Shown in pieces: positions 16,670-59,139 of a stretch of 64,000 nt of DNA. This stretch comes from Eudorina sp. 2006-703-Eu-15. Its lineage: Eukaryota; Chlorophyta; Chlorophyceae; Chlamydomonadales; Volvocaceae. The notes under the pieces were generated by a model that was not told the DNA's origin, searched no databases, and saw nothing but the letters and a program-made list of their open reading frames with translations. The DNA lies in NCBI GenBank assembly GCA_003117195.1, contig BDSI01000055.1:558001-622000 (forward strand). The letters are read 5' to 3'. The position numbers and the translations under genes were made by a program. Each line of letters starts with the position of its first letter. The stretch's first letter is position 1.

Positions 16670-17354
16670 TGTCGGGCCGTCCTGTCGTCATCGTCAATTT
16701 AGCGTCTAACTACTTTCTGGTAGTGTATTATTGTGCGGAGACAACCGTTATTTTGGTTAAACGTTTGCCTTTGAGGCGGCCCACCGTTGGCCGCAAGTGC
16801 CGGGTTGCGATCCGGTGCAAAGTAGTGTGACCATAAGTTGGCTTCAGTAAATCTTCGTTGGCATATTCATAGTTATCCGGCAATGCTGATTAAGTTTAGT
16901 TTTGCCGTTTTTGCAGTTGGTGAGGTTGGGCAACTGCCCACCTTCGATTAGGTAACTCGAGTTGGTTTCGTAGCGAGGACGCACTCGCTACGGCAGTCAC
17001 GTTTGGCTTCTCGGAACTATAACCAGCCGAATGCGGACCGGAAAGGTCGCTTTTCGGCTCTCTTTGGTGTGTTGTAACACTGTGAGCTAGGAAAGAAGCC
17101 CTGTGTGGTTCACGACCGCATAAGATCCAGCTGCATCAAGACTACGAGAGGACCTTCAGCACAAGCCCAATCATCTGGCACGCTCAGCAGGGTAAGGAAT
17201 CGCGACCTTGTCTTGCTGCTGTAACTGCCGGGACGGAAGGAGGCGCCTGAGATCTGCGCAGGGAAAAGGCTCGAGCACACGTGGAGTGTCTTCGAGTCCC
17301 ATTCCGATTCTGCTGCAGGTTATTCAGAAGCCTTACGTCAAGCCGTCACATCCC
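16670..17354 (+). repeat. Direct repeat A1 (LTR-like, 685 bp)
   Basis: It matches 27467-28151 base for base as far as read and begins TGTCGGGCCG. It contains a TGTAA signal near 17073, suitable for transcript ends. The sequence after it (agccgaaaag) does not resemble a tRNA primer-binding site. Confidence 0.9.
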
Positions 17355-17723
17355 AGCCGAAAAGCGGTGAAGTGCGTTGTTCTCGGGTCGGGGGCCTGCG
17401 GACGCGCGGGCAACTCAATAGGTGCAAGAGCGGGCGCCAAGCGTGCTTAGTACGCGCGTGCCACGCAACAAAATCTGTATTTTCTCTGTTTGAACGTTCG
17501 TCTCGGTTGGTTACGCCGGCCGCTTTCCGTGCAGCGCACGAAGTACCATTGGGTAACATTTCGCACACTTAGGCAGCTACCTAGGGTGCGCTCCTGTGGC
17601 TAACAAGTCACAAGGATATTTGCTGTTTTGTCTGTTTGTTTGTCTGCTTTTGCTTTGTCTTCGCTGGTGGCGTACCGTTAGGACGCCGCACAGATCCTGA
17701 GTCTTGCTTGTTCTTTTTGCCCA

Positions 17724-18254
17724 GTGAGCCGTCACGGTAGGTACCGTGATTACCCGGAGCTCGCTAGGGTCTCCTCGTCACCGTACCGAAGGGGCCGTGA
17801 CGACCATCGGCGTGACGACCATCGGCGTGACGACCATCGGCGACGTGAAGACCGGAGCCGCGACCGGAGTCGCAGCCCGCACGGTCGTTTTGACAACGAG
17901 CGGGAAGGCCGGAGACGTCACGACGACGCCTTGACTTCCACGCTCCTGCGGCTGTCCGAGGCTACGGAGCGTATACTTCAAGTCGTCGCTCCGCCGCCAC
18001 CGGCTCCGATCCGTCCTCTCTTGCCAACGGTGGACCCGTCCATCCCCGGAGTTCCTCTGGCAGAGGCCCTCCACGGCATCACGTTGCTGCCAGAGCGACA
18101 GGGGGATCCGCTACGCATCTTGCGACTCGCTCTGGTGCTGGTCAACGCCGACGCTGTGCCGCCAACGATAGATCGCCGCGCCGTCACCAGTGACAACGGC
18201 CAGTTCATCGTGGTGCCAACGTTTGACTTGAGTGGGGCGCCCATGCAGGGCTGA
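17724..18254 (+). CDS. Retroelement 1 ORF1: small basic RS/RD-rich protein
   Basis: This open frame has no ATG. Reading is open from 17682 after a TAG and the first usable codon is GTG. A good acceptor (ttctttttgcccag) sits just before 17726, so the product is probably made from a spliced leader or is fused to an upstream exon. The first 65 residues hold tandem RRDDH units and RS/RD pairs, giving a strongly basic RNA-binding-like segment. The rest is Pro/Leu-rich. No family is recognised; by position it is a gag-like nucleic-acid-binding protein. Confidence 0.5.
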   Translation: MSRHGRYRDYPELARVSSSPYRRGRDDHRRDDHRRDDHRRREDRSRDRSRSPHGRFDNEREGRRRHDDALTSTLLRLSEATERILQVVAPPPPAPIRPLLPTVDPSIPGVPLAEALHGITLLPERQGDPLRILRLALVLVNADAVPPTIDRRAVTSDNGQFIVVPTFDLSGAPMQG

Positions 18255-18303
18255 CTACGGGGTTGGAAGTGTGCGGTGCGACGTCTCTTCCTTGTAACGC
18301 AAG

Positions 18304-21300
18304 GTGGAGCCCGCCCCGTCCTCCTCTCAACTTCGTAGACAGCCTGCTAGATCAGCGACTTCGGCGCAACTCAGGTCCAACCAGGCCCGGGACGTAGCTG
18401 AAGTAAGTAGGGCAGCTGAGAGGGTTTCTAGACGGGCAACGGTTAGCTCATCTGGGCAGGGCAGTGCGCAGGGTCACGAGCCTTCCCCGGAGTCTGAAGG
18501 GGTCGGGAACGGGTTACCCCCAGCGGGCAATCCGGTCCCAACTCTTGAGCGATTTGCCGACCCGTCCGGCTCCGTAGGCACTGCGACGGTATCACCCGTA
18601 CGGTCTTACAGAGCTGTCTGGACTCGCTTGGTTTCGCACCTTAACTTGCCTAGATCTCGTCCGGTCCTAACCGATTACTATCAGCACTTCGACTCCATGA
18701 GCAGCTCATATCCGACCTTCGATTTCCGGGTCGGCACATTGAAGAAGTTCATCAGGGACTTCCGCAATGTGGCCTTGCTAGACATAGAGCAAAAGAGAGG
18801 CGCAGGCCAGGTGTCAGTGGCCACGCTGTACGGGGTTATCAAGAACGCCCCAGAGTCTGACACCGAGTTCTCTCGGTGGTGGCTCACCAAGGAGCCCACC
18901 TTCCTCGCGGATGCAGCCGCGTGGAAAGGGGCCGTACTGCCACAGGGAGTGGGAGGGGCAGGGGCGCCGCCGCCGGGATCGACGGTGCTCACCGCTCACG
19001 ACCTGTTGGATTACTACGAGCACTGCCTGAAGGAGCACTTCAAGCTGGAGCAGGAGGAGCTCGACTATCAGGCGTTCAAGGCGGCCAAGCAGGGCACCCG
19101 CAAGCCTTCAGACTTCTACCAAGAGCTGTTGGGTTTGCACGGGCGCCTCGCCGCCAGGGTCAGCCAGCAGCAGCTGGCTGAGAAGTTCGTGGATGGGTTG
19201 GATCCGGGATTGCATGCGCTGATTCGCGGGGAGGTCTTCAAGATAGGGCGTTCCCAGTGGTATGCGCACATGGCTAACTTCGCGGATCTCGCCCAGAGGG
19301 TCTGGAACAACATGCTCTCCGAGACTGGTCCCTCCACGAGCACCACCAGCGCCAAGGCGCCCGACAAGCCCAAGAAGGCGGCCGCTCCCGCTGACAGCTC
19401 GCCGGCGCTCAAGCCCAAGACGCTGTACTTGTGCAAGAACCACGGGTACAACACGTCCCATACGACCGAGAACTGCAGGCTCAACGCGCCCAAGACCGCC
19501 ATGATGACGGCAGACCCCACTGCAAGCCTCGTTCAGCAGCTGGTGGCCGCCCTGTCGTCAAGTGCGCAGGGATCCGGTGGGGCAGGATCAGGCGGCGCGA
19601 GCAAGCCCAAGAAAGGCGGTGAGCCGGGGGGACGAGCGTCGGGAGGTGGCTCCAGCTCGGGAGCGGGGCCCAGCGCTGGCGCAGCACGGGGTGGCAGGGC
19701 ATCGCAGAATGACAGGGAGCAGAGGGAGGATCGGGATACCACGTCTTGCAACTACTGCCGCCGGAGAGGGCACGCCGAGGACAGGTGCTTTATCAAGCAC
19801 CCCCACCTTGCCCCGCCAGGCTTCCGCCCCATGAGCCCAGTCCTGCAGATCGCCTTCGAGCAGAACCGGGCCGTCCGGCCCGCCCGGATGGCGGCGGCCG
19901 TCGTGGAGGATGACTTCGGCGAGGAGGATGACGACAAGCCCGTCTGCTTCAGCCTTGCAGTGAGCGGGTACAATGGGATGGAGGATGGGGACGACAGGGA
20001 CAACGGGATGGCAGCCGGGCTTCTGGGTGCAGCTCCGTGCACTACGGCCATGCACAAGGCGTTGGCCACCACGTCCCCGCAGAGCGTGCCACTGTCTTTC
20101 CAACCCAAGCCGCTGAACGTCTCTGCCTATCCACCGCCGCCAGTAACGCGTGAGCAGAGCGCCAAGCCCGCTGCCACACGCATCGGAAGGCCACCGTCCA
20201 TGGAGCTTTCTCGCGCGGACGACCTCTTCTTTGGCCAGCTTCTGGACATGCCGATTCGCCGCGTGTTCCAGGGGCTAGCCAGCCGCGCGAGCGCCCCGCC
20301 GGAGCAGGTTGCTGGGCCGAGTTCGCAGCCGCCGCAAGTGGAGGCGCCTGTCACGCAGGAGCCAAGTTCACGCGCGGAACCGGTCGCCGCGGTGACAACT
20401 AGCCGCGGCCTGCTCGCCAACCACGGCGCGCCGCAGCAACACGAGGGCCACGGGTTCAGTTACGCCGTGTACGGTGCAAAAGGTGAGCCGCCGCGTACGC
20501 TGTGCAGCATGACGCCGTCTGAGCGGGAGCGCGCACTCAGCACCAACCCCCAGGCAGCCAGCTACTTGCGCCGTCCCAAAGGGCTGTATTATTACCCGGC
20601 AGGGGCCTGCGCTGTAGCTCTCGACGGACGCAGCGTCTCTGTGATTACCCTGCGGGATAAGGCAGCCACGCCGAACATCATGCCAACCAGTGTTGCCAAG
20701 CAGCACGGGCTGAGCATTCGGCCAACCAGCACTCGCCTCTCCACCTCGCTAGAGCAGGGGTGCACCGTGCGGGGCGAGCTCGACCTAGATGGGGTATCAT
20801 TTGTCTTGCTGCCCGGCACACCGCACGAGACCCAAGTGCCGCTGACTCAGACGTTGGTGGCCGATGTTGCGCCTGACTTGTTTCAGCTGCTTGTGGGCAA
20901 CGAGCAGTGCAAACTGCTGGGGGATGCGCTCGAGTCATACCCAACCCCGCAACTCTCCTTCCTGCCAAACTTCATTGAGCGCCCGGATTACCGTGTCACT
21001 CTCCCAATGAAGCCCTTCCCAGCCGGTCCCCCACGGACCAAGGGCTCATTCGCGGTAGCTTGCGTCAGCGCCGTACTTCCCATCTCTCCAACCCCGTCGG
21101 AGGAGCTGGGGGGGGAGCGTCCGCTGACGACAACAGGCCTGCCCAGCCCATGCAAGAGCCGCAGGCCCAGCCCATGCAAGAGCCGCAGGTCAGGGTGGGG
21201 CCGCACGCTGAGGTGGAGCCGCAATTCAAGGCGGAGCCGCAAGCCCAGCCTATGCAAGGGTCGCAGGTCAGGTTGGAGCCTCAAGACAAGTCGGAGCCGC

Positions 21301-21384
21301 AGGCCAACGCGGAGCCGCAGGGCGGGCGTACGCAGACGCCAAGAAGTCAAGGGCCCGCTCGGAGCTGGACGGCACTCGTCATGA
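18304..21384 (+). CDS. Retroelement 1 gag with CCHC zinc knuckle and degenerate aspartic-protease-like region
   Basis: The frame is 1026 codons opening at GTG; the first internal ATG is well downstream, so the true start or an upstream splice is unknown. Residues about 120-340 resemble a retrotransposon capsid domain, with a helical stretch ending YQELLGLHGRLAARVSQQQL. A CCHC knuckle (CNYCRRRGHAEDRC) lies near 19749-19790. Residues about 760-900 look like a retropepsin, but the usual D-T/S-G-A active site reads DKAATPNIM. The final 90 codons overlap pol in another frame, and the relative at 37-44 kb reads through this region in one frame. The gag call is good; protease activity is doubtful. 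Confidence 0.75.
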   Translation: MEPAPSSSQLRRQPARSATSAQLRSNQARDVAEVSRAAERVSRRATVSSSGQGSAQGHEPSPESEGVGNGLPPAGNPVPTLERFADPSGSVGTATVSPVRSYRAVWTRLVSHLNLPRSRPVLTDYYQHFDSMSSSYPTFDFRVGTLKKFIRDFRNVALLDIEQKRGAGQVSVATLYGVIKNAPESDTEFSRWWLTKEPTFLADAAAWKGAVLPQGVGGAGAPPPGSTVLTAHDLLDYYEHCLKEHFKLEQEELDYQAFKAAKQGTRKPSDFYQELLGLHGRLAARVSQQQLAEKFVDGLDPGLHALIRGEVFKIGRSQWYAHMANFADLAQRVWNNMLSETGPSTSTTSAKAPDKPKKAAAPADSSPALKPKTLYLCKNHGYNTSHTTENCRLNAPKTAMMTADPTASLVQQLVAALSSSAQGSGGAGSGGASKPKKGGEPGGRASGGGSSSGAGPSAGAARGGRASQNDREQREDRDTTSCNYCRRRGHAEDRCFIKHPHLAPPGFRPMSPVLQIAFEQNRAVRPARMAAAVVEDDFGEEDDDKPVCFSLAVSGYNGMEDGDDRDNGMAAGLLGAAPCTTAMHKALATTSPQSVPLSFQPKPLNVSAYPPPPVTREQSAKPAATRIGRPPSMELSRADDLFFGQLLDMPIRRVFQGLASRASAPPEQVAGPSSQPPQVEAPVTQEPSSRAEPVAAVTTSRGLLANHGAPQQHEGHGFSYAVYGAKGEPPRTLCSMTPSERERALSTNPQAASYLRRPKGLYYYPAGACAVALDGRSVSVITLRDKAATPNIMPTSVAKQHGLSIRPTSTRLSTSLEQGCTVRGELDLDGVSFVLLPGTPHETQVPLTQTLVADVAPDLFQLLVGNEQCKLLGDALESYPTPQLSFLPNFIERPDYRVTLPMKPFPAGPPRTKGSFAVACVSAVLPISPTPSEELGGERPLTTTGLPSPCKSRRPSPCKSRRSGWGRTLRWSRNSRRSRKPSLCKGRRSGWSLKTSRSRRPTRSRRAGVRRRQEVKGPLGAGRHSS

Positions 21385-24300
21385 TGCTGTACTCGGCTCT
21401 CATGTCTATCGTCACGATGGTACCGCAAATGTGTCACGCCCGTGTATGTCGGCCGGCTTTGCAGGTGGTGGATTCCGTTGTCGCCCTTGCTTGTGTCGCT
21501 TCAGCTCCCCGTCACGGGCAGCGGGTGCAGTATGCCCGCAGGAATCGGGCAGGCAAACGAAAGCGCCCACAAGTGTCAGTGGGCGGCCGCGTGATCTACC
21601 CTGCTTCGCCGCCAAGGACCTGGCTTCATTGTGCGTCTTTCATGCTCGTGGTGTCCCTCCTGTTCACGCTTGCGGCAGGGGTGGGTGCCATGCAGGGCGC
21701 AGTGCTGGATGGAGACCTCGTTCGCCTGACGACTGGGTTGCAGGCAAGCTGTGTGGCATCGGGTCAGCCCGGTGCCCTTGGACCGTCTCCCTCCTACGTC
21801 GAATTTGGCTTTGATCCGCTGGCCATGACGGACATGGAGGACTACAATCAGTGGGTCACGCGGGGTCACGCCTCGTCGTTTGCCAGCGTGGGATCCTTCA
21901 CACCGGAGGGGCACTCATCGGCGGCGTCCTACAGTCGCTACGAGAAGGACCAGTCTGGTGGGTGGATATGGGGAAACAGTAGTGCATTTGATGATAAAGC
22001 CAAGTCCGAACTCCGGGAAGTTGTGCGCTCCCGCAAGGACAAGGCCTTTGCATACAGCATGGAGGAATTACCTGGGTATCAGGGGAGCCAGGGGCCTTTC
22101 ACGCTAGATCTTGACACTGAGCGACCAATAGTTCAGCCCCCACGCCGCTACTCGCCGAAGGAAAAGGAGGTCGTGGTGCAGAAAACGGCGGAGTTGGTCA
22201 AGGCGGGGATAGTGGTAGAGCATAACGGTCCAACCATTTGCGCGGTGAACCCAGTCATAGCGGCAAAGAAGGATCCAGACACGGGCATGTGGACGGATCA
22301 TCGCATGGCTCAGGATTACCGACCAGTCAATAAACACACCAAGGCCGATCGCTACGGCCTCCATCGTCCAGAGGACATCTTCCATCAGTGTGCGCGTGCG
22401 CAAGTGTTTTCTAAGCTTGACTTACGTCAGGGGTTCCTGCAAATCCCTATCTCGGCAGGAGATCAGCCCAAAACGGCGTATTGGGTTGGCAACAAGCTAA
22501 TGATGTACACTCGTATGCCGTACGGTCTGAAGAACGCGTCAGCCAAGTTCCAACGCGTGATGGATTACGAACTCGCCAAGGCGGACCTGGACCACTGCGC
22601 TAGAGCATACATTGATGACGTTCTTATCTTCAGTGCCACACCAGAGGAGCACGTTAAGCATGTGGCGGCTGTCCTTGATATGCTGCACTCGTGTGGGTTA
22701 CGTGCGCACCCTGACAAGTCCATCTTTGGCGCGGATGTTATCGAGTATTTGGGTCATAACCTCAGTGCGCAAGGGATTAGCCCCCACCACGCCAAGGTGG
22801 CGGCGATCTTGTCCATGCCCGCGCCCAAGAACGTTTCCGAACTGCGTGCACACTTGGGTTTTATCAACTACTACCGGTGCTATATTCCAAACATGAGTCA
22901 GCTCACTGTTGATCTGACTGTTCTGCTCAAGAAGGACCAGCCCTGGGTTTGGGGGCCTGCGCAGGAAGCCGCGTTTGCAGCTATCAAGGCTGTCTTTCAG
23001 AATGACGGGCTGATCTTGCGACAGGTTGATTACTCAAAGCCGCTCGTGTTACACACGGATTTCTCTAACCGTGGTATAGGTGCCGTACTCGGACAGTTGG
23101 ATGAGGAGGGGAACGAGTACATGTGCGCTTGCATCAGCCGGTCCTTGAACAAGCATGAACGCAACTACAGCAGTTACAAGGGGGAGATGCTAGCAGCAGT
23201 GTGGGCTGTGAAAATGTTTCGTCATCACTTGTTGGGTGGTCCTAAGTTTCGGCTAGTGACTGATCACCAACCTCTGACGTACTTGATGAGTTCGGATGGG
23301 CTCACGGGGCAGTACGCGCGGTTCGCCCTGGTCATGCAGGAATATGACTTTGAGGTAGTGCATCGCCCTGGTGTCAAACATCAGAATGCTGACATGTTGT
23401 CCCGTCATCCTCAGGCGTCAAGTGCGGACAATACAGGTGCCCGGATGGACGAGGACGCGCCTGCCCGTGTTCTCCAAGTGACAGCTGCGCTGTCCTATGC
23501 CCGGCAGGACTGCGCCCTGACCTCCCTTGCGTTGGCATCTAACATCCCTCTTGCCCCGTTCTCTGATGATTTCTGTTTTTCACAAGATTTACTTTTGCCT
23601 GGCAATTTGGGCCTGCCGTCTGACTTTGTGGACCACCCGCCCAGCGAGGGGCCTGAGCCTGAGAGAAGGGGGTGGGAAAGGGCTCGCGAACGGGCCGTTC
23701 ATGCAGTACGGCAAGCGTCCCAGAAGAATCCAGAGCTTTTCGCATCTTCTCACGTTGCACCCTCAACTCGTGCGTTTTTCACTCGTGCGTTGGGTCACGG
23801 GATCACTGTTTTCGAGCCCCTGGGTGGCATGTGCGCCGGTCTTGAGTCCTGCTTGCGTGCGGGTTTCAAGGTTGACCGGTATATTTGTTCAGAGTCTAAT
23901 CCTTCCGCTGTCAGTGTTGTGTCGGCGCGCTTGGACAAGTTAAGTGCCGAATTTCCCAAGTTGCTGTCCCCTGAGGCATATAAAAGAGTCTGGATCGACT
24001 TGCCCTCAGATCTTTGCACGATCGATGAGCAGGCCTTGCTTTCCGCAGGAGCCTGTGACGGTTCTCAGTGGTTTGTCTTTGCGAGCTGGTGCTGGCACGA
24101 TGTGGGAAAGGAGCCGGGTTCCCTGGCTCCAGGTCAGAGCGTCACTGATGAATTACTACGGGTTGTGCAGACCATGCAGCGCATACAGCGGCGTGCGCCG
24201 GCGTACATGCTGGTGTGCGAACAGCCTAGGGAAACTTGGCAGAACGCAACCGCCGCGCAGCAACGCATCACTTCAGTTTTGGGTCAGCCCGTGGTGGTGG

Positions 24301-26114
24301 ACGCCGTACAATGTGGGTCACTGGCTCATCGTCTCTCGGCCCATTGGACCAACCTGGCCCCAGCGGCCCAGCTGGAGGCTGTGCTGTCCTGCGTCAAGCC
24401 TGATCCAACAGTCGTGTTGCAGAATGTGCTCTCACCAGGTCGGGTTACCTCCGTTTCAACCGCGGTGGAGCAGGCAGGTCTGTACTCACGCAATCAAGTC
24501 GGTAAGCCCATCGTTGTCGCACCGAGTCTCAGTCGGCCATCATTGCGTGCATTAGCCGAGGTGGTTGAGGATGAGTCTAGTCCTTACGAGGGATCTTTGT
24601 CTATTGTGGAATGTGAGAAAATCATGGGGTATCTGCCAGGTGTGACTGAGGCACCAGATGTTTCTGAAGCAGATCGACGGGTCATCTTAGGTCTGGCACC
24701 GGATGCCACCCTGACGCTGTCCGTGCTGAGCATCTGCCGTGTCCTATCAAACACCTCGTCACACGATGTTGCAGCTGCATGCACCGGAATTTCTTCTGCT
24801 CCCCAGCCTGTTCATGGGCTGGCTTACTCCCTGTGTTCCGTCGAGTCCTTTTTCCCTTGGTCTGAAGTTTTTGCCGCCGCGTCTCGCGCGGAAGCGGAGG
24901 AGTCCTCTGGTGCAGCTGGTCGCTGCCCGGACATCTGGGAGGACGAACCGTCCATCTTCTTTATCGGTAACGGTGCTCATATGCCAGGATTGCCGCCTGA
25001 GGAGCAGCGGCGGGTTAGCCGTCGTGCACGCTCATACCGCATGCAAGGAGGCGTTCTCTATCGGGTGTTCAATGACTCTCGTGCTCGGGTTGTTCCTAAG
25101 CCTCCGGATCGTGTTGAGCTAGTGAAGCGCACACATGAAGAGACGGGCCATTTTGGCGTACGTCGCACTATGGCGCTGCTGCTCACGCAACATTGGTGGC
25201 ATGGCATGCACCGAGATGTTTCCAGTATTGTACGACACTGTTCGCATTGTGACCGTGTCAACTCGTCGTTTGCATCTGGCCCTCCAACCTTGCATCCTTT
25301 GCCTGTTCAGGGGTTGTTTTATCGTTGGGGTGTTGACCTATGTGGGCCGTTGCCTCGTACTACTCAGGGTAATACGTACGTCATGATCTGTGTAGAGCAT
25401 TTTTCCAAATACGCTGTGTTTATCCCCTTGCCTGACAAGGAGGCCGTGCACACCTCCAGTGCTTTCTTGAGTCAGATTCTTGCCCGATATGGGGCCTGTG
25501 CAGAGGTATGCACAGATGGCGGTGGTGAATGGAAGGGGCAGTTTGCGCAACTCATGCTTGACAGTCTGATTGACCACCGCCAGACTTCACCCAATCACCC
25601 TCAGGCCAACGGTCTGGCTGAACGGGTCGTGCAGACATGCAAGCGCGCGCTGCGTCGCATGGCGCGGCAGCGGGCTGATGGGCAGCAGTGGGATGAGTTG
25701 CTTCCGTACGTCATGCTGGGCTACAACTGCTCCAAGCACAAGGCGACGGGGCTCAGCCCGTACTTGCTACTCCACGGGGTCGAGCCGACTATCCCTCCTG
25801 CCATCAAGCCACGGTTTGACGGGAATATCTCGTTTGATGATGTTGAAACCGCTGCAGCCTCCCTTGTGTCGCGTGGCCAAGCCATGCGCCAGCGTATTTC
25901 TATCGCGGGGGATAATTTGTTAATAGCGCAGCACCGGGATTCGCTTCGCTACGCTTCCCTCAGGGGGGGCGGGTATCACCCAAAAATACGTCAGTTTGAC
26001 GTCGGGGACTATGTATATTTCCGTAATACTACGAGCCGTACTACCCTTGATCCGCGGCTCAGCCAACCATATTGCGAGTTGCTGAGGTTCGCCCTAGCGG
26101 GGTCATTATATTAG
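21060..26114 (+). CDS. Retroelement 1 pol: RT, RNase H, C5-methyltransferase-like domain, DDE integrase
   Basis: The frame is 1684 codons. Its first 95 codons overlap gag and are probably entered by a -1 shift. Two hydrophobic stretches lie at residues about 100-120 and 183-205. RT follows, with LDLRQGFLQIPI and YIDDVLIFS (Y517). RNase H has LHTDFSNRG near residue 667 and an LVTDHQPLTYL motif. Residues about 915-1240 follow C5-cytosine methyltransferase order: FEPLGGMCAGLE, ASWCWHDVGK, LVCEQP, AHRLSAHWTNL and ECEKIMGY. The integrase has an H-x4-H / C-x2-C zinc site (from HEETGH, near 1359) and a DDE core: D in GVDLCG, D in CTDGGGEW, E in GLAERVV about 35 residues later. The integrase C-terminal domain (FDVGDYVYFRN) begins before the frame breaks at 26114. 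It reverse-transcribes and integrates the element; the methyltransferase-like part is of unknown activity. Confidence 0.85.
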   Translation: MRQRRTSHLSNPVGGAGGGASADDNRPAQPMQEPQAQPMQEPQVRVGPHAEVEPQFKAEPQAQPMQGSQVRLEPQDKSEPQANAEPQGGRTQTPRSQGPARSWTALVMMLYSALMSIVTMVPQMCHARVCRPALQVVDSVVALACVASAPRHGQRVQYARRNRAGKRKRPQVSVGGRVIYPASPPRTWLHCASFMLVVSLLFTLAAGVGAMQGAVLDGDLVRLTTGLQASCVASGQPGALGPSPSYVEFGFDPLAMTDMEDYNQWVTRGHASSFASVGSFTPEGHSSAASYSRYEKDQSGGWIWGNSSAFDDKAKSELREVVRSRKDKAFAYSMEELPGYQGSQGPFTLDLDTERPIVQPPRRYSPKEKEVVVQKTAELVKAGIVVEHNGPTICAVNPVIAAKKDPDTGMWTDHRMAQDYRPVNKHTKADRYGLHRPEDIFHQCARAQVFSKLDLRQGFLQIPISAGDQPKTAYWVGNKLMMYTRMPYGLKNASAKFQRVMDYELAKADLDHCARAYIDDVLIFSATPEEHVKHVAAVLDMLHSCGLRAHPDKSIFGADVIEYLGHNLSAQGISPHHAKVAAILSMPAPKNVSELRAHLGFINYYRCYIPNMSQLTVDLTVLLKKDQPWVWGPAQEAAFAAIKAVFQNDGLILRQVDYSKPLVLHTDFSNRGIGAVLGQLDEEGNEYMCACISRSLNKHERNYSSYKGEMLAAVWAVKMFRHHLLGGPKFRLVTDHQPLTYLMSSDGLTGQYARFALVMQEYDFEVVHRPGVKHQNADMLSRHPQASSADNTGARMDEDAPARVLQVTAALSYARQDCALTSLALASNIPLAPFSDDFCFSQDLLLPGNLGLPSDFVDHPPSEGPEPERRGWERARERAVHAVRQASQKNPELFASSHVAPSTRAFFTRALGHGITVFEPLGGMCAGLESCLRAGFKVDRYICSESNPSAVSVVSARLDKLSAEFPKLLSPEAYKRVWIDLPSDLCTIDEQALLSAGACDGSQWFVFASWCWHDVGKEPGSLAPGQSVTDELLRVVQTMQRIQRRAPAYMLVCEQPRETWQNATAAQQRITSVLGQPVVVDAVQCGSLAHRLSAHWTNLAPAAQLEAVLSCVKPDPTVVLQNVLSPGRVTSVSTAVEQAGLYSRNQVGKPIVVAPSLSRPSLRALAEVVEDESSPYEGSLSIVECEKIMGYLPGVTEAPDVSEADRRVILGLAPDATLTLSVLSICRVLSNTSSHDVAAACTGISSAPQPVHGLAYSLCSVESFFPWSEVFAAASRAEAEESSGAAGRCPDIWEDEPSIFFIGNGAHMPGLPPEEQRRVSRRARSYRMQGGVLYRVFNDSRARVVPKPPDRVELVKRTHEETGHFGVRRTMALLLTQHWWHGMHRDVSSIVRHCSHCDRVNSSFASGPPTLHPLPVQGLFYRWGVDLCGPLPRTTQGNTYVMICVEHFSKYAVFIPLPDKEAVHTSSAFLSQILARYGACAEVCTDGGGEWKGQFAQLMLDSLIDHRQTSPNHPQANGLAERVVQTCKRALRRMARQRADGQQWDELLPYVMLGYNCSKHKATGLSPYLLLHGVEPTIPPAIKPRFDGNISFDDVETAAASLVSRGQAMRQRISIAGDNLLIAQHRDSLRYASLRGGGYHPKIRQFDVGDYVYFRNTTSRTTLDPRLSQPYCELLRFALAGSLY
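21108..21115 (+). other. Eight-G tract at the gag-pol frame change
   Basis: A run of eight G begins in the CTG of the gag frame. Re-reading one base (a -1 shift) here moves ribosomes into the pol frame, where residues continue ASADDNRPAQ in line with the single-frame relative at 37-44 kb. It could be a programmed frameshift site or a simple homopolymer indel. Confidence 0.5.
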
Positions 26115-27345
26115 AGGGGTACGATGGCAAGTTCCTGAAAGGTCATGTCAAGGATTGCGCTCCATGCCACCTGCCCATCAGGGATGAGGTGGTCGACCCT
26201 CGTTTAGCGCGTCCTGACGCTACGTTGTCTTGCCAAGTGTGTCACCTGCCTACTGGGAAGAATGGATGCTATTGTGCGATGGTTGTGGAAAGGGGTGGCA
26301 TACTTACTGCCTGAAACCGCCTCTCACGGTCATTCCACCGGGGACTTGGGTGTGTCCTGACTGCGTTGACAGGGGTATTACGCCCGAACAGATAGATGCC
26401 AACCCTGTTCATCCGCAAACTAAGGGTACCGCATCAACCTCTCTCCCTCTCAGGCCAAAAACACCACAGGTGCTGGCCAGCCTTCAAGGAGCAAGGGTCG
26501 TGCGTGTCAGCACTAGCCCGGAGTCGAACTCTACCAAGGGCGGTGTTGCTACGTATGTGGGGAGACAAGGGCGGCAGCACGTGTTCGAAGTGCTGTACGA
26601 CGATGGAGAGCTGGAGCAGGTGGACACAAATCGCCTTAGGGCGATGCTGGCGCCGAAGGCCGCTCGTCCAAAACGAGCGGTGCAGGCTGCCGCGGTTACC
26701 GCGGCGAGCCCTGACGAGTGGAGCATTCAAGCGTGTGCTGATGTTGCTGTTGCGTTGGCGACTGCCATGCCGGGGGATCATCCAATTGAGAAGGTGGCCT
26801 TGCTGGCCCGCGCCTGGGAAACCAGCGCCATCGAACAACCGCTCATTCCTCCGGATCATGTGGCGTCATTGACCGGTTCAATCAATCTCCAGCTTGTTGG
26901 GGAGGTGGTCTGTCCTTGGGCAGTCCAGCCGGCCGTACAAGTCGCTTTGGTCAGTCATGGTGTTCGTGTGTTGAAGGGAAAGCTGGGTGACGTACGGGAT
27001 CCTCTTTCGCCGGCATTTTACAAGTCCGTCGAAGAGCAGGTGTCGTCCATCGAGTCAGTGTTTTTGTCAGTCGCTGGGGCACCTCTGGATTTAGCAATTC
27101 CAGCGGCGCTCAAGTATGCCAAGAGCTTTGTGATCGCTCGCGTACCGCTGCATTATGTGTCGGCAGCTGACGAGTTGCGAATGCGCTGGCTCAAGTCGCT
27201 GCAGCGCCAGGGTCGTTTGTTGATGTTGCGGTGTCCATTGAAGGATGCCACGGATCAGTTCTTCATGTGGCTGATTGTCTTCGCCACTCCAGTCATCAAG
27301 CAGTTGATAGTCAAGGATTCGGGCCTAGTAGAGGACCTGTTGTGA
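26072..27345 (+). CDS. Retroelement 1 C-terminal part of pol: PHD finger, Tudor-like segment, conserved terminal domain (frame broken)
   Basis: Sequence colinear with the intact frame at 37909-39264 continues here in two other frames. The first, 26072-26314, carries HVKDCAPCHLPIRDE and the first Cys pair of a PHD finger (CQVCHLP). The second, opening within 26230-27345, carries the rest (LLCDGCGKGWHTYC, then WVCPDC), a C4HC3 pattern. One base appears to be missing near 26255 and another change lies near 26060. After the finger comes a Tudor/Agenet-like stretch (VLYDDGELEQV). The last 140 residues include DELRMRWLKSLQRQGRLLML and are strongly conserved between the two copies. The finger may guide integration by reading histone tails; that is inference. 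Confidence 0.7.
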
Positions 27346-27436
27346 GTTTGGTGCGCTCAGTCACGTGTGCACCCGCGCCCACCGGCTAATAATGCGGTGC
27401 CCGCTGGGGGGGGAGTGTTCCCTCGGCACATGCTTT

Positions 27437-27464
27437 GTTCGTACGACAGTCATCTGACCTGACA
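27437..27464 (+). repeat. Repeat B1 (28 bp)
   Basis: It is identical to 28161-28188. It ends CTGACA and is followed by GC and then repeat A2, giving the palindrome GACAGCTGTC at the junction. The same arrangement with diverged sequence is present in the second element near 37785-37812. Confidence 0.85.
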
Positions 27465-27466
27465 GC

Positions 27467-28151
27467 TGTCGGGCCGTCCTGTCGTCATCGTCAATTTAGC
27501 GTCTAACTACTTTCTGGTAGTGTATTATTGTGCGGAGACAACCGTTATTTTGGTTAAACGTTTGCCTTTGAGGCGGCCCACCGTTGGCCGCAAGTGCCGG
27601 GTTGCGATCCGGTGCAAAGTAGTGTGACCATAAGTTGGCTTCAGTAAATCTTCGTTGGCATATTCATAGTTATCCGGCAATGCTGATTAAGTTTAGTTTT
27701 GCCGTTTTTGCAGTTGGTGAGGTTGGGCAACTGCCCACCTTCGATTAGGTAACTCGAGTTGGTTTCGTAGCGAGGACGCACTCGCTACGGCAGTCACGTT
27801 TGGCTTCTCGGAACTATAACCAGCCGAATGCGGACCGGAAAGGTCGCTTTTCGGCTCTCTTTGGTGTGTTGTAACACTGTGAGCTAGGAAAGAAGCCCTG
27901 TGTGGTTCACGACCGCATAAGATCCAGCTGCATCAAGACTACGAGAGGACCTTCAGCACAAGCCCAATCATCTGGCACGCTCAGCAGGGTAAGGAATCGC
28001 GACCTTGTCTTGCTGCTGTAACTGCCGGGACGGAAGGAGGCGCCTGAGATCTGCGCAGGGAAAAGGCTCGAGCACACGTGGAGTGTCTTCGAGTCCCATT
28101 CCGATTCTGCTGCAGGTTATTCAGAAGCCTTACGTCAAGCCGTCACATCCC
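27467..28151 (+). repeat. Direct repeat A2 (LTR-like, 685 bp)
   Basis: This is the second copy of repeat A, with the same length as 16670-17354 and no difference seen. It is followed by nine bases and then repeat B2. Confidence 0.9.
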
Positions 28152-28160
28152 TCGTACGAC

Positions 28161-28188
28161 GTTCGTACGACAGTCATCTGACCTGACA
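28161..28188 (+). repeat. Repeat B2 (28 bp), right end of retroelement 1
   Basis: This is an exact copy of B1 at 27437-27464, followed by ATGC, which also precedes A1. Confidence 0.85.
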
Positions 28189-28192
28189 ATGC

Positions 28193-32812: not shown

Positions 32813-32930
32813 CAGCTCTTGTGAAGCGCTACCTTACCGGACAACTGGGCGCTAATTGTCAGACAGTGCCCTGCATTTAGCAGAACAGGTAACAAGCAAA
32901 CACTGTGAATTCAGTAGAGCATCGTTGACT

Positions 32931-37908: not shown

Positions 37909-39264
37909 TTAAACCAAATCTTCCACCAAACCGCTATCTTTCACGATCAGCTGCTTGACCAACGGCGACGCGAAAATGATCACCCACATGAACAGCGCCT
38001 CCTCGGATGGAACAAGGGGGCAGCGCAGCATAAGCAAACGACCCTGCCGCTGCAACGACTTCAACCAGCGCATGCGCAACTCATCCGCCGTAGCGATATA
38101 TGACACAGGGACACGCGCCACCACGAAACTTTGCGTGAAACGGACTGCCGCTGGCAAGGCCAGATCAAGCACATGACCGGAAGCAGACAAGAACACAGAC
38201 TGGACGGCGGACACCTGCCGCTGCACTGACTCATAAAACGACGGCACCAACAGCCCCTTAGGATCGGCAGACTTACCTTTCATGATGCGGACACCATGCG
38301 ACATCAAAACCGACCGCACCGCCGGTGAGACCTCCCAAGGGCAAACGACCTCCCCCACCATGCCCAGATCCAACGCCGACTTCAACACATCGACATGCTC
38401 GCTGGGCACGCTGGACTCGGTGAAACTGCTGGACAGCGCATTGGAGATGAGTGCAACCTTGGACGCGGAGTGCTCCCCAGGCATGGCCATAGAGAGTGCA
38501 GCGGCTACCGCCCCCCCAGATTCCAAGCTCCAATCCCCTGACTGGACGGAGGTCACCGCCGCTGAGGCGCGTAGAACACGTGTTGGGCGTGGACTAGTGG
38601 GGGCAAGCATAGTGCGCAGCTGTCGTACCGTGACCATTTCGCTGGCGCCATTTTGATACACGACGTCAAACAAATGAGTACGGCCCTGAAGGCCTACGTA
38701 AGTGGCAATGCCGGAAACAGCACCTTGCGCACCCATCCCGGACCCTGTGTGAAGCACCCTGGCACCCTGCAGATGCTTTAGGTACGAAGGGGGCTCAGGC
38801 ACAGGCTTGGGGGACGCATCGGGAACAGCCACCTTGGCAAGAGGCCTGGCATCAATCTGCTGGGGAGTGATACCTTGAGCGACGCACTCGGGGCACACCC
38901 AGGTACCCTCGGGGATACGACGCAACGGGGGAGTGAGACAGTACGTGTGCCAGCCCTTCCCGCAGCCATCGCAGAGCAACATCCACTCGTCACCGGACGG
39001 GGATCGGCACACTTCACAAGGGAGCAAAGCAGAGGGTTTAGCAAGACGTGGATCCACAGTCTCATCCCGAATGGGCAGGTGGCAAGGAGCACAATCCTTT
39101 ACGTGAGATTTGAGTGTCAACCCGTTCTGACCCTGAAGAACCAAAACACCGGTGGGCCGCACCTCAATGACCCGCAGGATAGTGGGCCTGGCGGCGGGGT
39201 CCAGCGTCGTCTGAGAAGTAGTATTGCGATAGTAGACATAGTCCCCAACCTCGAACTCGCGCAT
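37909..39264 (-). CDS. Retroelement 2 C-terminal pol: integrase CTD, PHD finger, Tudor-like segment, terminal domain
   Basis: The frame is intact for 451 codons beginning MREFEVGDYVYYRN, the integrase C-terminal barrel, which normally follows the catalytic core without a stop. A PHD finger follows with CEVC, LLCDGCGKGWHTYC and WVCPECV in C4HC3 order. Next is a Tudor-like strand set (THLFDVVYQNGASEMVTV). The last 140 residues include VVCPWEVSPAVRSVLMSHGV and DELRMRWLKSLQRQGRLLML. This domain also closes the element 1 protein, so it is under selection. Its fold is not recognised with certainty; a degenerate N6-type methyltransferase is conceivable. In the ancestor this was one protein with the integrase; here a one-base loss near 39285 separates them. 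Confidence 0.7.
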   Translation of the reverse strand: MREFEVGDYVYYRNTTSQTTLDPAARPTILRVIEVRPTGVLVLQGQNGLTLKSHVKDCAPCHLPIRDETVDPRLAKPSALLPCEVCRSPSGDEWMLLCDGCGKGWHTYCLTPPLRRIPEGTWVCPECVAQGITPQQIDARPLAKVAVPDASPKPVPEPPSYLKHLQGARVLHTGSGMGAQGAVSGIATYVGLQGRTHLFDVVYQNGASEMVTVRQLRTMLAPTSPRPTRVLRASAAVTSVQSGDWSLESGGAVAAALSMAMPGEHSASKVALISNALSSSFTESSVPSEHVDVLKSALDLGMVGEVVCPWEVSPAVRSVLMSHGVRIMKGKSADPKGLLVPSFYESVQRQVSAVQSVFLSASGHVLDLALPAAVRFTQSFVVARVPVSYIATADELRMRWLKSLQRQGRLLMLRCPLVPSEEALFMWVIIFASPLVKQLIVKDSGLVEDLV

Positions 39265-39368
39265 TTTTGGATGGTAGCCACCCCACGAAGAGCAGCATAC
39301 CGAAGGGTGTCCCTGTGCTGCGCGATCAGCAGGTTATCCCCAGCAATGGAGATGCGCTGCCGCATGGC

Positions 39369-41203
39369 CTACCCTCGTGAGAGAAGCGATGAGGCGGCTA
39401 GCTCAGGGTTGTCGAAGGAGATGTTATCCGCGAATCGGGGTTTGATCGCAGGGGGAATGGTGGGCTCTACACCATGCATGATGAGGTAAGGGCTGAACCC
39501 CGTGGACTGATGCACGGAACAGTTATAACCTAACATGACGTACGGTAACAATTCATCCCAATCCCTGCCTTCAGCCCGCTGCCGCGCCATGCGACGGAGC
39601 GCCCTTTTGCAGGTCTGGACCACCCGTTCCGCCAAACCATTGGCCTGCGGGTGGTTGGGTGACGTCTCACGATGATCTATCAGCGAATTCAGCAAGAGCA
39701 ACGAAAAGGCACCCTTCCACTCACTACCCTGGTCGGTGCAGACCTCGGCGCAGGCACCGTAGCGCCCTAGGATATGGTGCAAGAACGCGGAAGCCGTGCG
39801 ATCGGCCTCCTTATCAGGCAACGGAACAAAAACTGCGTACTTAGAGAAATGCTCTACGCAAATCATCACGTAGACATTCCCCGAGTTGGTGCGAGTGAAC
39901 GGGCCACAAAGATCCACGCCCCAGTGATAGAACAAGCCCTGTACCGGCAATGGATGCAGGTCAGGCGACGGGGCTGAAAAGGAGGTATTAACACGATCAC
40001 AATGCTCACAGTGTTTGACAAAGTTGACTATGTCTCGGTAGACGCCATGCCACCAGTGACGGGTAAGCAGCAGCGCAACAGTGCGACGCACCCCGAAATG
40101 GCCAGTCTCCTCGTGTGTGAGTTTGATCAGTTCCACACGATCAGAAGGCTTGGGAACCAGACGTGCTTTGGAGTCGTTGAACACGCGGTACAACTCACCC
40201 CCTTGCATGCGGTAGGCACGAACCCTCCGCGTGACACGCCTCTGCTCGGACAGGGGCAGGTTGGACACGTGCGTGCCCGTACGAAGGAAATGCATAGATA
40301 CTTCATCATCCCAGATATCCGGCCATCGTCCCTGGGACCCCGAAGAGTCCTCCTGCTCCGCTTGGACAGCCGCGGCGAAGACCGTGGGCCAAGGGGAAAC
40401 AGGCTCGCAGGGAAACAGGGGATAGGCCAGGCCATGAGACGGCTCAGGCACAGCTGGGGACGAGTCACTCAGAGCACACGCAGCAACAACCTCATGCAGT
40501 GGCGTGTTGGAAAGAACTCGGCACAAAGACAACACACCAACGGTGGAGGCCAAGTCGGGCGCAAGACCCAGAATGCGGCGCTTCTGAGCCTCGCTTACCT
40601 CGCGAGCCTCTGTGGCCTCATCAGGGTAGCCCATGGCCCGGGCACACTCAAGGACTGTTAGACTGCCCAATTCCGGCTCACAGGGATCGAACACAAGATC
40701 ATATTGGTGCTGCAGCTCCGGACGACTTAGGCTGGGAGCCACGCACAAAGGCTCACCCACTTTGTTCCGGGGGTACGTGCCCGGGGGATCAGGCGCTTGC
40801 GCGAGACGCACAGTGCGCCCTGGGGAGAGCACATCCTGGAGCACGGCCGTGGTGGGCGGCTGCACCCCAGAGATCACCGCGGCAAGCGGCTTTGGCGGTG
40901 AGAGGTTTGTCCAATGCGTGGATACGCGATGCGCAAGTGCGCCAAATTGTACTGCATCAAACGTGATGGATGGGCTCACCGAACGCACTCGTGACTCGTG
41001 ACTGGGCAGCACATGCGTTCTTCCAGGACTCACGAGGCTGCTCACAAACAAGGAAATAAGCGGGCGAACGCCGCTGGATGCGCTGCAAAGTCTGAATAAT
41101 GCGAACGACGTGATCCACGACGCAGGACTCGGGTGCAAGGGAGCCCGGTTCCTTACCTACGTCGTGCCAGCACCAGCTCGCAAACACCACCCACTGGGAG
41201 CCG
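39369..41203 (-). pseudogene. Retroelement 2 pol, middle part: methyltransferase-like C-half and integrase, with frameshifts
   Basis: The methyltransferase-like region runs in two frames: 41190-40957 carries VFASWCWHDVGKEPG and LVCEQPRESW, then a shift near 40980 leads into ALAHRVSTHWTNL and ECARAMGY. The integrase follows with HEETGHFGV, C-x2-C, GVDLCGPF, CTDQGSEWKG and GLAERVV all present. A TAG replaces the Gln of the element 1 RGQAMRQ at 39371. Domain order equals that of element 1. Confidence 0.75.
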
Positions 41204-44102
41204 TCACAAGCTCCAAGTGGCCATGAGTGACTCCTCCGTTACTTTGCGGGGATCAAGAGGAAGGTCCAACCACACACGCTTGTAGGAGTCAGGGGCGAAT
41301 TGCGCGGGGTACTCAGCGCTCAACCGATCCAAGCGCGCAGACACGATTTGAGCGGCAACTGGATCTGGTTCAGACGAGATGTAGCGGTTCACCCGGACGC
41401 CGCACCGAAGCAGGGCCTCCAGACCAGCACACATGCCCCCCAAGGGCTCGTAAACAGTGACTCCCTTACCCAAGGCTTGAGAAAAGAATGCGCGGGACGT
41501 AGGATGTGAAGTGTTTGCGAAAAGCTCGGGATTGGCGCGCGCAGCTGAACGGACCCACTTGACCGCCGAGGCATGAACGGCGTCACGACGCTCCCTGACC
41601 AAGTCAGACTCCTTAGATGGAGGCATGTCTATCACATCAGACGGAAGGCCCAGATGGCCCGACAGAAACTGGTCAGGGACAAAGCAAAAGTCGTCGGAAA
41701 ACTTAGCGTGCGGCACGTGGGAAGACAGTGCGGTGCGCACTGCTGTGCACTCCTGAGATGCATGCGACAGGGCAGCAGACACACGCCGAACGCCGGCCAA
41801 ATCCTCCTCATCCAGCCGGGCACCGGTATTATCAGCGGTCGTCTCCTCAGGATGTCGCGACAACACATCCGCATTTTGATGCTTGAGACCCGGGCGATGG
41901 ATAACCTCAAAGTCGTATTCTTGCAGTACAAGGGCAAACCGGGCGTACTGGCCCGTGAGCCCGTCCGCACTCATGAGGTACGTGAGAGGTTGATGATCGG
42001 TGACCAGGCTGAACTTCGGACCACCCAACAAGTGATGTCTAAACATTTTCACTGCCCACACGGCCGCGAGCATCTCACCTTTGTAGCTGCTGTAATTCCG
42101 CTCATGCTTATTGAGTGATCTGCTGATGCAGGCGCACATGTATTCGTTGCCCTGGTCGTCCAGCTGACCCAGCACGGCACCCAACCCCTTGTTGGAGAAG
42201 TCGGTGTGCAAGATGAGAGGCTTGGAGTAGTCGATAGGGCGAAGAATCAACCCCTCCTTGGAGAATACGGACTTGAGCGCGGTGAAAGCTGCATCCTGAG
42301 CGGGACCCCATACCCATGGCTGATCCTTCTTGAGAAGCACCGTGAGATCGGTGGTGAGCAGGCTCATGTTGGGGATATAGCACCGGTAGTAATTGATGAA
42401 ACCCAAGTGAGCGCGAAGCTCAGACACATTGCGAGGAGTGGGAAGGTTCAGGATCGCGGACACCTTGGCGTGGTGAGGGCTGATTCCGTCCGCGCTCAGG
42501 TTGTGACCCAAATACTCAATGACATCAGCTCCGAAAATGGATTTATCCGGGTGCGCACGAAGACCACATGAGTGAAGGGCATCGAGGACAGCAGCGACAT
42601 GCTGCACATGTTCCTCGGGGGAATTGCTGAAGATTAAAACATCGTCAATGTACGCACGGGCGCAGTGGTCTAAGCCGGCCTTGGCCAACTCGTAATCCAT
42701 GACCCGTTGAAACTTGGCAGACGCATTTTTCAACCCGTACGGCATACGGCCGTACATCATCAACTTATTACCCATCCAGTACGCAGTTTTGGGCTGGTCC
42801 TGCTTGGCAATAGGGATCTGCAGAAAGCCCTGCCTAAGGTCCAACTTAGAGAAAACCTTCGCCTTAGCGCACTGATGGAAAATGTCCTCCGGGCGGTGGA
42901 GTCCATACCTGTCAGATCGGGTATGCCTGTTCACCGGTCGGTAGTCTTGCGCCATGCAGTGATCCGTCCACAGGCCCGTGTCAGGATCCTTCTTGGCGGC
43001 GATTACCGGATTGACAGCGCACACCGTGGGACCCGTATGCTCAAGAACTATGCCCGCCTTGACCAGCTCCGCCGTTTTCTGCATGATTACCTCCTTTTCC
43101 TTCGGCGAGTACCGGCGCGGCGGTTGAATGATGGGGCGATCCGTGTCCAAATCTAAGGTGAACGGCCCCTGCTCACCCGAGTAACCGGGCAGCTCCTCCA
43201 TGCTATACGCAAAAGCCTTGCCCTTGCGCATGCGAACGGCCTCGCGCAGTGCGTGTGACGCACTGGGCTCAAACAAGGAACTATTTCCCCAAATCCATCC
43301 CCCATCGCTGTCCTTCACGTAGCGCTGATAGGCAGCGGCGGCCGAATTTCCCTCAGGGGTGAAAGATCCCACACTGGCCATAGCCATGGCGTGACCCCGC
43401 GTCTCCCATCGCGCATAGTCCCTAGGATCTGTCTCTGCCCAAGGATCATATCCCAAACCGCCGTACTCTGGCAGACGAACACCCCCGTGTTGCAAGAGAA
43501 TGCCCCCGGAAGTCACGACATTGCAAGATATAGATGCAAGGTCACTGTCAAGCACGGCGCCGTGCATGGCACCAGCACCCGCAGCGAGTGTGAACAGCAA
43601 ACAAGTGACGAGCGCAAAGGAAGCAAGGCTGAACCAGGTCCGCCGAGCAGGTGGGGGACTGTTAACACTCTTCTGACGGCGCCCCAAACGAGCCCGCTTG
43701 CGCTTACCCTTGCGCTCGACGAATGACCGGGTCGAAAGCGGTGGTGTAACAGGGAACGAGGCAGTCGCCATGCACGCTGACTCGATCAGCCGATCCAGCA
43801 CCATCCCCACCGGCTTTGCCGCGGCGCAACAGAATGCGGTGGACGTGGAGATCAACGTGAGCAGGCTGGTGAGGAGGTACGTGAGGACGCCCTTCCACAT
43901 GCCCCAGCTGGCAATATGCCTTGGCAGAGACGTTACGCACTTGGATGGCTGAGCTCCGCCTGGTGAGGGAGATGCTGCTGGTGGCGGTGCGGCATCCCCC
44001 GTGGAGAAGTGCATGGGCTCGACTGGCATGCTGGCAGCGTTGGCTGGCTTTAGTGAGGGAGATGCTGCTGGTGGCGGTGCGGCATCCCCCGTGGAACAGT
44101 GA

Positions 44103-44190
44103 ATGGGCTCGACGGGCATGCTGGCAGCGTTGGCTGGTTCCCCCCCCAGATCGGAACCAGAGGGAGACGAGCTGTCCGTGGTCGCGCTAA
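44103..44190 (+). repeat. Arm 1 of an 88-bp inverted repeat at the 5' end of retroelement 2
   Basis: This segment recurs inverted at 44548-44635 with few differences. The two arms are separated by about 360 bases of protease-region coding sequence, giving a fold-back end. Confidence 0.75.
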
Positions 44191-44547
44191 CACAGGCAAC
44201 GGCCAGCTGCGCCGTTTTGTTCGTGCTGCCTATGACCGGTTGCATGGGAATGGTGACACGATATTCCGGGTACTCAACCAGGTTGGGGTGAAAGTGCAGA
44301 CGCGGCGTGGGGTAGGAATCCAAGCCATCGCCCCACAGCTTAGCTTGCTCGTTGCCAACCAGGAGATGGAACAAGTGCGGTGCCACGTCCACCACCAGGG
44401 TCTGGGTAAACGGCACCCTGGTGGCGTGCGGTGTGCCCGGCAGGAGCGTCAGGTAAAGACCGCTCACATCCAACTCGCCGCGCACACTGCATCCTAGCTG
44501 CGCAGAAGTTGACAGCCGGGTGTTTGTGGGTTTGATGGGCAGGTTGT

Positions 44548-44635
44548 GGGCGCGTGCCACCGACAGCTCGTCTCCCTCTGGTTCCGATCTTGGGGGGGAA
44601 CCAGCCAACGCTGCCAGCATGCCCGTCGAGCCCAT
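44548..44635 (-). repeat. Arm 2 of the 88-bp inverted repeat
   Basis: It is the inverted copy of 44103-44190. Because of it the open frame of element 2 begins with residues that are not ancestral protease sequence. It abuts the 22-bp terminal inverted repeat at 44646-44667. Confidence 0.75.
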
Positions 44636-44667
44636 GATATGTCAGAGAGCAGTCATACGGCCTGACA

Positions 44668-56155: not shown

Positions 56156-56159
56156 TCGG

Positions 56160-59095: not shown

Positions 59096-59139
59096 ACGAG
59101 CAGCCCGTAGCGCTGCGAACCCCGGGCGAGCCTACGGGA

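What the first reader, a model, noticed from the sequence alone, without database searches (positions are those of the whole stretch)
23800..24780. C5-cytosine-methyltransferase-like domain inserted between RNase H and integrase of a Ty3-type retroelement
Seen: after RNase H and before the integrase zinc site, pol carries VFEPLGGMCAGLE, SESNPSA, FASWCWHDVGK, LVCEQP, AHRLSAHWTNL, ECEKIMGY and a final ILGLAPDA stretch. Known: C5 DNA methyltransferases show the order motif I, II, IV (PC), VI (ENV), VIII (RxR then WTN-like), IX and X. Inference: a methyltransferase was captured into pol and could mark or mask element DNA, or act as a DNA-binding scaffold. Captured cytosine methyltransferases are known from retroelements of other eukaryotes; a position inside pol ahead of the integrase in a volvocine alga would be notable.
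Basis: partly seen in the sequence, partly recalled or inferred. Interest (0 to 1): 0.9.

Follow-up and report, generated by a model that had tools for sequence, protein, structure and literature searches.

The report
Dead DNA methyltransferase inside algal retrotransposon
A jumping gene in what is probably a volvocine green alga carries, inside its copying machinery, a protein shaped like the enzyme that chemically marks DNA; its relatives look able to make the mark, but this lineage seems to have lost the working residues and kept the shape, which suggests that a tool for writing marks became one for holding or reading DNA.

Summary

The nucleophilic Cys (40 of 41 relatives) is Trp, the motif VI Glu-Asn (41 of 41) is Val-Cys, and the second motif VIII Arg is Ser, in 6 of 6 clade rows. 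A sister subfamily in the same genome lacks the motif IV loop. Yet the domain stays constrained (pN/pS 0.13, CI 0.10-0.17, between two dead subfamilies). The pol C-terminus carries a second, apparently dead class-I methyltransferase fold. The element (16670-28188, TSD ATGC) has A-coding-B-A-B repeats. Best reading: methyltransferase turned non-catalytic DNA/chromatin-binding module. Inactivity and that function are inferred.

The parts
16670..28188 (+). complete LTR-type element (subfamily A); TGTCGGG...CTGACA ends, 4-bp target site duplication ATGC at 16666-16669 and 28189-28192
16670..17354 (+). terminal repeat A1 (BLAST reports 16668-17354; the first two bases belong to the target duplication)
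27437..27464 (+). short repeat B1, directly before A2; junction reads CTGACA-GC-TGTCGGG, i.e. the two element ends joined by two bases
27465..28151 (+). terminal repeat A2, 100% identical to A1 over the 687 bp aligned
28161..28188 (+). short repeat B2, right end of the element; nine bases lie between it and A2 in this copy
18298..21384 (+). gag-like ORF (weak Retrotrans_gag match, E 0.16; zinc-knuckle-like CNYCRRRGHAEDRC by eye)
20979..26114 (+). pol ORF; the frame ends early in this copy, matches on C14 and C171 lie in open frames of 2122 and 2126 aa
22290..22763 (+). reverse transcriptase (PF00078)
23028..23345 (+). RNase H (PF17917)
23757..24770 (+). DNMT3-like C5-cytosine methyltransferase domain without the usual catalytic residues
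23805..23846 (+). motif I TVFEPLGGMCAGLE, conserved
24084..24110 (+). motif IV place, SWCWHDVGK; the Cys position is Trp (24093-24095)
24210..24227 (+). motif VI place, LVCEQP; Glu-Asn replaced by Val-Cys
24324..24356 (+). motif VIII AHRLSAHWTNL; second Arg replaced by Ser
25107..25601 (+). integrase, H2C2 zinc site and rve core with D, D, E places
26257..26364 (+). PHD finger in the pol tail (PF00628, E 4.8e-9)
26548..26649 (+). Tudor-like stretch (weak Pfam matches, E 0.034 and 0.061)
26707..27318 (+). C-terminal class-I methyltransferase-like domain; DPWAGTG and SPWF of P0010 read CPWAVQP and SVAGA here
37909..44641 (-). second, diverged copy (subfamily B) with the same domain order; its methyltransferase motifs lie in three different frames

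Best explanation
A DNMT3-family cytosine methyltransferase was taken into the pol polyprotein of a Ty3-type element lineage found in green algae, between RNase H and integrase, where most relatives still look catalytic. In the ancestor of this (volvocine-type) clade the active site was lost, the domain went through a burst of change, and it was then held again by purifying selection as a pseudo-methyltransferase. It most likely works without methylation, as a DNMT3L-like DNA- or chromatin-binding module of the RT/integrase complex, together with the PHD finger, the weak Tudor-like stretch and a second apparently dead methyltransferase fold in the pol tail, helping to hold the cDNA or choose the insertion site. 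Shown by computation: homology, predicted fold, placement, loss of the catalytic residues, constraint among subfamilies that share the loss. Inferred: lack of activity, DNA binding, role in integration.
Against: No binding, expression or activity data. The domain evolves faster than RT and integrase, as a partly relaxed relic would. Against subfamily D the ratio is 0.64 (0.56-0.73), weak constraint, and a few near-identical pairs gave ratios above 1. A Cys one residue before and a Glu two residues after the expected places leave a displaced active site thinkable. Synonymous sites are saturated between subfamilies, so ratios are rough. The two trees are quick searches with SH-aLRT support only. 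A host DNMT3, which a strict DNMT3L model would need, was not found: PF00145 gave two exon matches, by eye DNMT1-like and DNMT2-like; introns limit that search. Whether this genome also holds copies with an intact motif IV is not known (and the P0010 requests unanswered).
Confidence: 0.68

Rival explanations
1. The domain is still an active cytosine methyltransferase with a rearranged active site (Cys shifted by one residue, Glu by two), and methylates the element's cDNA as proposed for other Dnmt3-bearing retroelements.
For: WCWHDVGK is invariant in 6 of 6 clade rows, and a Cys and a Glu sit close to the lost places. Motif I Gly-Gly and motif X Asp are kept. Retroelement DNMTs of other lineages methylate CG de novo according to de Mendoza 2018 (abstract and Discussion read).
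Against: Cys, Glu, Asn and the second Arg are all replaced together; three residues after motif IV are missing; the model is under pLDDT 50 at 127-137, just after SWCWHD; subfamily D kept the domain with no motif IV loop; CpG o/e of the element (0.92) is like the flanks (0.87-0.95).
Confidence: 0.1
2. The domain is a passive spacer or fading relic: the polyprotein only needs an open, soluble stretch between RNase H and integrase.
For: Faster change than RT and IN; weak constraint between window and subfamily D (0.64); 9 of 25 loci did not pass as an open domain of at least 90% length (two of these, L010 and L011, are nevertheless open over 306 codons).
Against: pN/pS 0.13 between L004 and L005 at saturated synonymous sites; commonest residue unchanged at 50 of 67 family-conserved columns, with the catalytic positions among the changed ones; WCWHDVGK, VCEQPR, AHRxSxHWTNL and VAPSLSRP invariant in the clade rows that cover them.
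Confidence: 0.15
3. The dead domain acts in trans on the host: it pairs with a host DNA methyltransferase and stimulates, misdirects or blocks it, shielding new copies from silencing.
For: Fold matches come from DNMT3A-DNMT3L and DNMT3B-DNMT3L complexes. A host DNMT1-like exon exists (by eye).
Against: No host DNMT3 found (limited by introns); polyprotein context argues for action in cis; interface residues not tested.
Confidence: 0.12
4. Chance resemblance or a different fold.
For: Single-sequence searches are nearly blank: no Pfam hit, best PDB E 0.78, DNMT3A only at 1.2.
Confidence: 0.01

Closest known systems
KnitGypsy-Dnmt3 of Klebsormidium nitens (de Mendoza et al. 2018, PMC5890265, section on charophytes read)
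   Same: Dnmt3-family domain inside the Pol ORF of a Gypsy element; A-coding-B-A-B (DIRS-like) repeat arrangement (Fig. 4 legend; the A-B-A-B wording is in the Fig. 1 legend); domain under purifying selection; green-lineage host
   Different: Its key functional residues are conserved according to the authors; here they are replaced. Its position relative to the integrase could not be read (figure not held), and no Klebsormidium protein was among the named hits here.
SymbioDIRS-Dnmt3 of Symbiodinium (same paper)
   Same: Dnmt3 domain in Pol, retroelement-borne, under purifying selection
   Different: DIRS elements with tyrosine recombinase, key residues conserved, dinoflagellate host, judged unrelated to the charophyte element by the authors
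DNMT3L (vertebrate; recalled, no call)
   Same: DNMT3 fold without a working active site, with a PHD-like zinc domain in the same protein, regulatory rather than catalytic
   Different: Host protein; here part of a polyprotein nested among retroelement methyltransferases, with the PHD after the integrase
Related Ty3-type pol proteins P0004-P0043, including Chlamydomonas eustigma P0040 and P0042 and Cymbomonas P0043; most from unnamed metagenome sources
   Same: Same order RT-RH, methyltransferase, integrase where detected; many with PHD; C-terminal class-I domain found in 13 rows, the window tail among them
   Different: Motif IV Cys, motif VI EN and motif VIII RxR kept in nearly all (exceptions P0043 for Cys, P0041 for the second Arg); in P0010 and P0017 the C-terminal domain also keeps DPWAG and SPWF

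Membership tests
C5-cytosine methyltransferase, DNMT3 family | Rossmann-type DNMT fold | tested here: met
C5-cytosine methyltransferase, DNMT3 family | Sequence profile relationship | tested here: met
   Family profile including the window hits DNMT3A at 2.7e-20; the window alone does not reach significance
C5-cytosine methyltransferase, DNMT3 family | Motif order I, II, IV, VI, VIII, IX, X | tested here: met
   Collinear alignment over profile positions 6-355; several motifs altered, see next rows
C5-cytosine methyltransferase (catalytic) | Motif IV nucleophilic Cys | tested here: not met
   Trp in 6 of 6 clade rows, Cys in 40 of 41 other rows
C5-cytosine methyltransferase (catalytic) | Motif VI Glu-Asn | tested here: not met
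   Val-Cys in 6 of 6, Glu-Asn in 41 of 41 other rows
C5-cytosine methyltransferase (catalytic) | Motif VIII R-x-R | tested here: not met
   First Arg kept, second is Ser in 6 of 6; Arg in 40 of 41 other rows
C5-cytosine methyltransferase (catalytic) | AdoMet binding and transfer of methyl to cytosine | not testable with these tools
   Motif I Gly-Gly kept, motif II Asp is Glu in 5 of 6; no assay
Ty3/Gypsy LTR retrotransposon | RT-RNase H before a DDE integrase with HHCC | tested here: met
Ty3/Gypsy LTR retrotransposon | Terminal repeats with TG..CA ends and short target duplication | tested here: met
   Repeats identical over 687 bp, ends TGT/ACA, TSD ATGC; TTGG at C14 and ATCT at C114 read by eye
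Ty3/Gypsy LTR retrotransposon | Aspartic protease | not tested
   No separate search made; Pfam listed none
KnitGypsy-Dnmt3-type element | DNMT3 domain in Pol of a Gypsy element | tested here: met
KnitGypsy-Dnmt3-type element | A-coding-B-A-B repeats | tested here: met
   Window, C14, C114; C111 has A repeats but no B of 20 bp or more; C73 and C32 not resolved
KnitGypsy-Dnmt3-type element | Conserved catalytic residues | tested here: not met
DNMT3L | Orthology to vertebrate DNMT3L | tested here: inconclusive
   No DNMT3L row in the trees; the clade nests among retroelement methyltransferases. Works-like claim only.

The most novel reading that the evidence does not exclude
A retroelement lineage that once carried two DNA methyltransferases (a C5-cytosine one before the integrase, an adenine-type one at the end of pol) lost catalysis in both and re-used both folds as readers: an integration complex that senses base modification or DNA shape through dead methyltransferases and histone state through PHD and Tudor-like parts, to choose where to insert or to escape silencing.
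Probability: 0.27. Interest if true: 0.86.

Novelty: new variant of a known kind. Interest (0 to 1): 0.7.

Why it matters
Why retrotransposons carry DNA methyltransferases is open; the explanations in the papers read here rest mostly on enzymatic methylation. Here is a lineage, with a catalytic-looking family around it and a dead-looking clade under continued selection, that lets catalysis and the rest of the domain be pulled apart. If the dead domain does a job, the captured enzyme has a structural or targeting role that may be independent of methylation. It would also be a DNMT3L-like conversion inside a mobile element.

Tried and rejected

Rows dropped before counts: P0044 (Closterium, methyltransferase before RT, motif VI EH), P0047, and near-copies L008, L010, L012; also P0042, P0043, P0045, P0046. 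L016 was not among the 25 loci, and 9 of those 25 failed its test for the whole domain. P0043 is the one row outside the clade without the Cys; the stretch looks like a gene-model problem, not checked. The protein searches did not see proteins outside 0.55 to 1.75 times the query length, nor any but the 8000 candidates sharing most words.

Papers: PMC5890265 read in part (parts 1, 2 and 4 of 7 of the text, its section on charophytes, and passages); PMC6338049, PMC12344493, PMC8226300 passages only; others only as listed rows. Searches for prior work (PMC open-licence library only; rows listed of papers found): 20 of 53, 5 of 5, 20 of 34, 20 of 61, 0 of 0, 15 of 81, 5 of 5, 1 of 1. No listed title or abstract start named an inactive methyltransferase in a retroelement. 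Passages of PMC6338049 say that methylase-bearing Ty3/Gypsy and DIRS elements occur in green algae among others.

Full report
What is there. The frame 20979-26114 (+) is a Ty3-type pol with RT, RNase H, H2C2 and rve integrase domains (rve alone below Pfam's cut-off). Between RNase H and integrase lies a stretch that Pfam does not recognise. A protein search found P0002 (Pleodorina starrii, 58% identity over the region), P0003 and the more distant P0004, and P0004 led to 41 proteins including itself, many with PF00145 and Ty3 pol domains. In these the stretch shows C5-methyltransferase motifs. A profile built from the 41 rows outside the window's clade finds the window domain at residues 900-1237, window 23757-24770, with 258 bits (E 5.7e-78 for the 1000 sequences searched); 997 shuffles reach 3.3 bits at most.

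The active site is changed. An alignment holds 41 rows outside the clade, 6 rows of the window's clade (P0001, P0002, P0003, P0046, L004, L005) and one of a sister subfamily (L009). In it 67 columns are conserved at 80% or more in the rows outside; at 50 of them the clade's commonest residue is the same. The changes include the motif IV Cys (Cys in 40 of 41, Trp in 6 of 6), the motif VI Glu and Asn (41 of 41 each; Val and Cys in 6 of 6) and the second motif VIII Arg (40 of 41; Ser in 6 of 6). In the sister subfamily (C114, C29, C228 copies) the motif IV loop is missing, motif VI reads GC and motif VIII C-x-Y. The two lineages share Cys at 1053 and Leu at 1180, and Cys at 1185 in L009 and 3 of 5 clade rows. 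They form one clade in the RT tree (100) and in the methyltransferase tree (98) (quick searches, SH-aLRT only). One loss followed by different further changes is the simplest reading, but two losses are not excluded.

It is kept all the same. The own genome (181 Mb, 3033 contigs) gave 32 matches to the pol, a lower bound, some of them pieces of one copy. In 16 of 25 loci that I examined the domain is open over at least 90% of its length. Between dead subfamilies B (L004) and C (L005), raw pN/pS in the domain is 0.132 (95% 0.102-0.169), against 0.063 in RT and 0.032 in integrase; window against L004 0.358 (0.308-0.418); window against L009 0.639 (0.561-0.727). Synonymous sites are near saturation, so these raw ratios if anything overstate the true ones. 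The state WCWHD is shared by subfamilies A, B and C and by P. starrii, so the divergence measured among A, B and C most likely came after the loss. The stem of the WCWHD rows is 1.13 changes per column in the methyltransferase tree and 0.11 in the RT tree, while the tips of P0001, P0002, P0003 and L004 differ two- to fourfold: this suggests a burst, then renewed constraint. Against this stand the weak constraint toward subfamily D and a few recent pairs with ratios above 1.

Architecture and element. In 27 of 27 proteins (window included) where RT-RNase H, methyltransferase and integrase are all detected, the order is the same; 8 more with only the last two and 7 with only the first two agree; P0044 (Closterium) has the methyltransferase before RT; in 4 only the methyltransferase was detected (47 proteins). 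The window element runs from 16670 to 28188 with long repeats identical over 687 bp and the target duplication ATGC. A short repeat lies before and after the right long repeat (28 bp in the window, 52 bp in the C14 copy, 30 bp in subfamily D at C114), and the inner junction reads ACA-GC-TGT, the ends of the element joined by two bases; C111 shows the same inner junction. This is the A-coding-B-A-B arrangement that de Mendoza et al. give for DIRS and say KnitGypsy-Dnmt3 shares (legends). The outer B copy was not found at C111, and C73 and C32 were not resolved.

How it may work. Shown by computation: homology, fold, placement, loss of the catalytic residues, constraint. Inferred: the domain binds DNA or a partner and serves the RT/integrase complex without methylating. 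The tail with PHD suggests a tie to chromatin. A strict DNMT3L role would need a host DNMT3, which I did not find. The rivals are a displaced active site, a spacer, and action on host methyltransferases.

Known and new. DNMT3 domains in Gypsy and DIRS pol are known; a 2025 survey still names streptophytes and dinoflagellates for them (passages). The rows listed gave no report of an inactive one; only an open-licence library was searched. I therefore call this a new variant of a known kind.

Noticed in passing
window 26707-27318 (+): Second methyltransferase-like domain at the pol C-terminus, class-I fold, motifs I and IV of relatives replaced.
   Followed up: partly
window 16670-28188: A-coding-B-A-B repeats in an element with DDE-type integrase, with inner junction ACA-GC-TGT equal to the ends joined by two bases.
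   Followed up: partly
window 37909-44641 (-): Second diverged copy of the same element family, methyltransferase motifs in three frames, other copies of its subfamily open.
   Followed up: partly
L009, L010, L011 (G000 C114, C29, C228): Sister subfamily whose methyltransferase domain is open but lacks the motif IV loop.
   Followed up: yes
L029, L030 (G000 C171 202001-216716): Copy with extra terminal-repeat pieces, one of them inverted, at its right side.
   Followed up: no
P0044 (Closterium sp.): Methyltransferase stretch before RT instead of after RNase H, perhaps a separate capture.
   Followed up: no
window 32856-35210 (+): ORF of 784 aa that reads like a Pif1/Helitron-type helicase (GEPGSGKT, by eye).
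   Followed up: no
window 57929-59131 (-): ORF of 400 aa that may be a tyrosine recombinase (HSFRRG...LGRYTDE, by eye).
   Followed up: no
window 55193-56212: Tandem-repeat ORFs (GGRPSFGENATCGRKA-like units), open in three frames.
   Followed up: no
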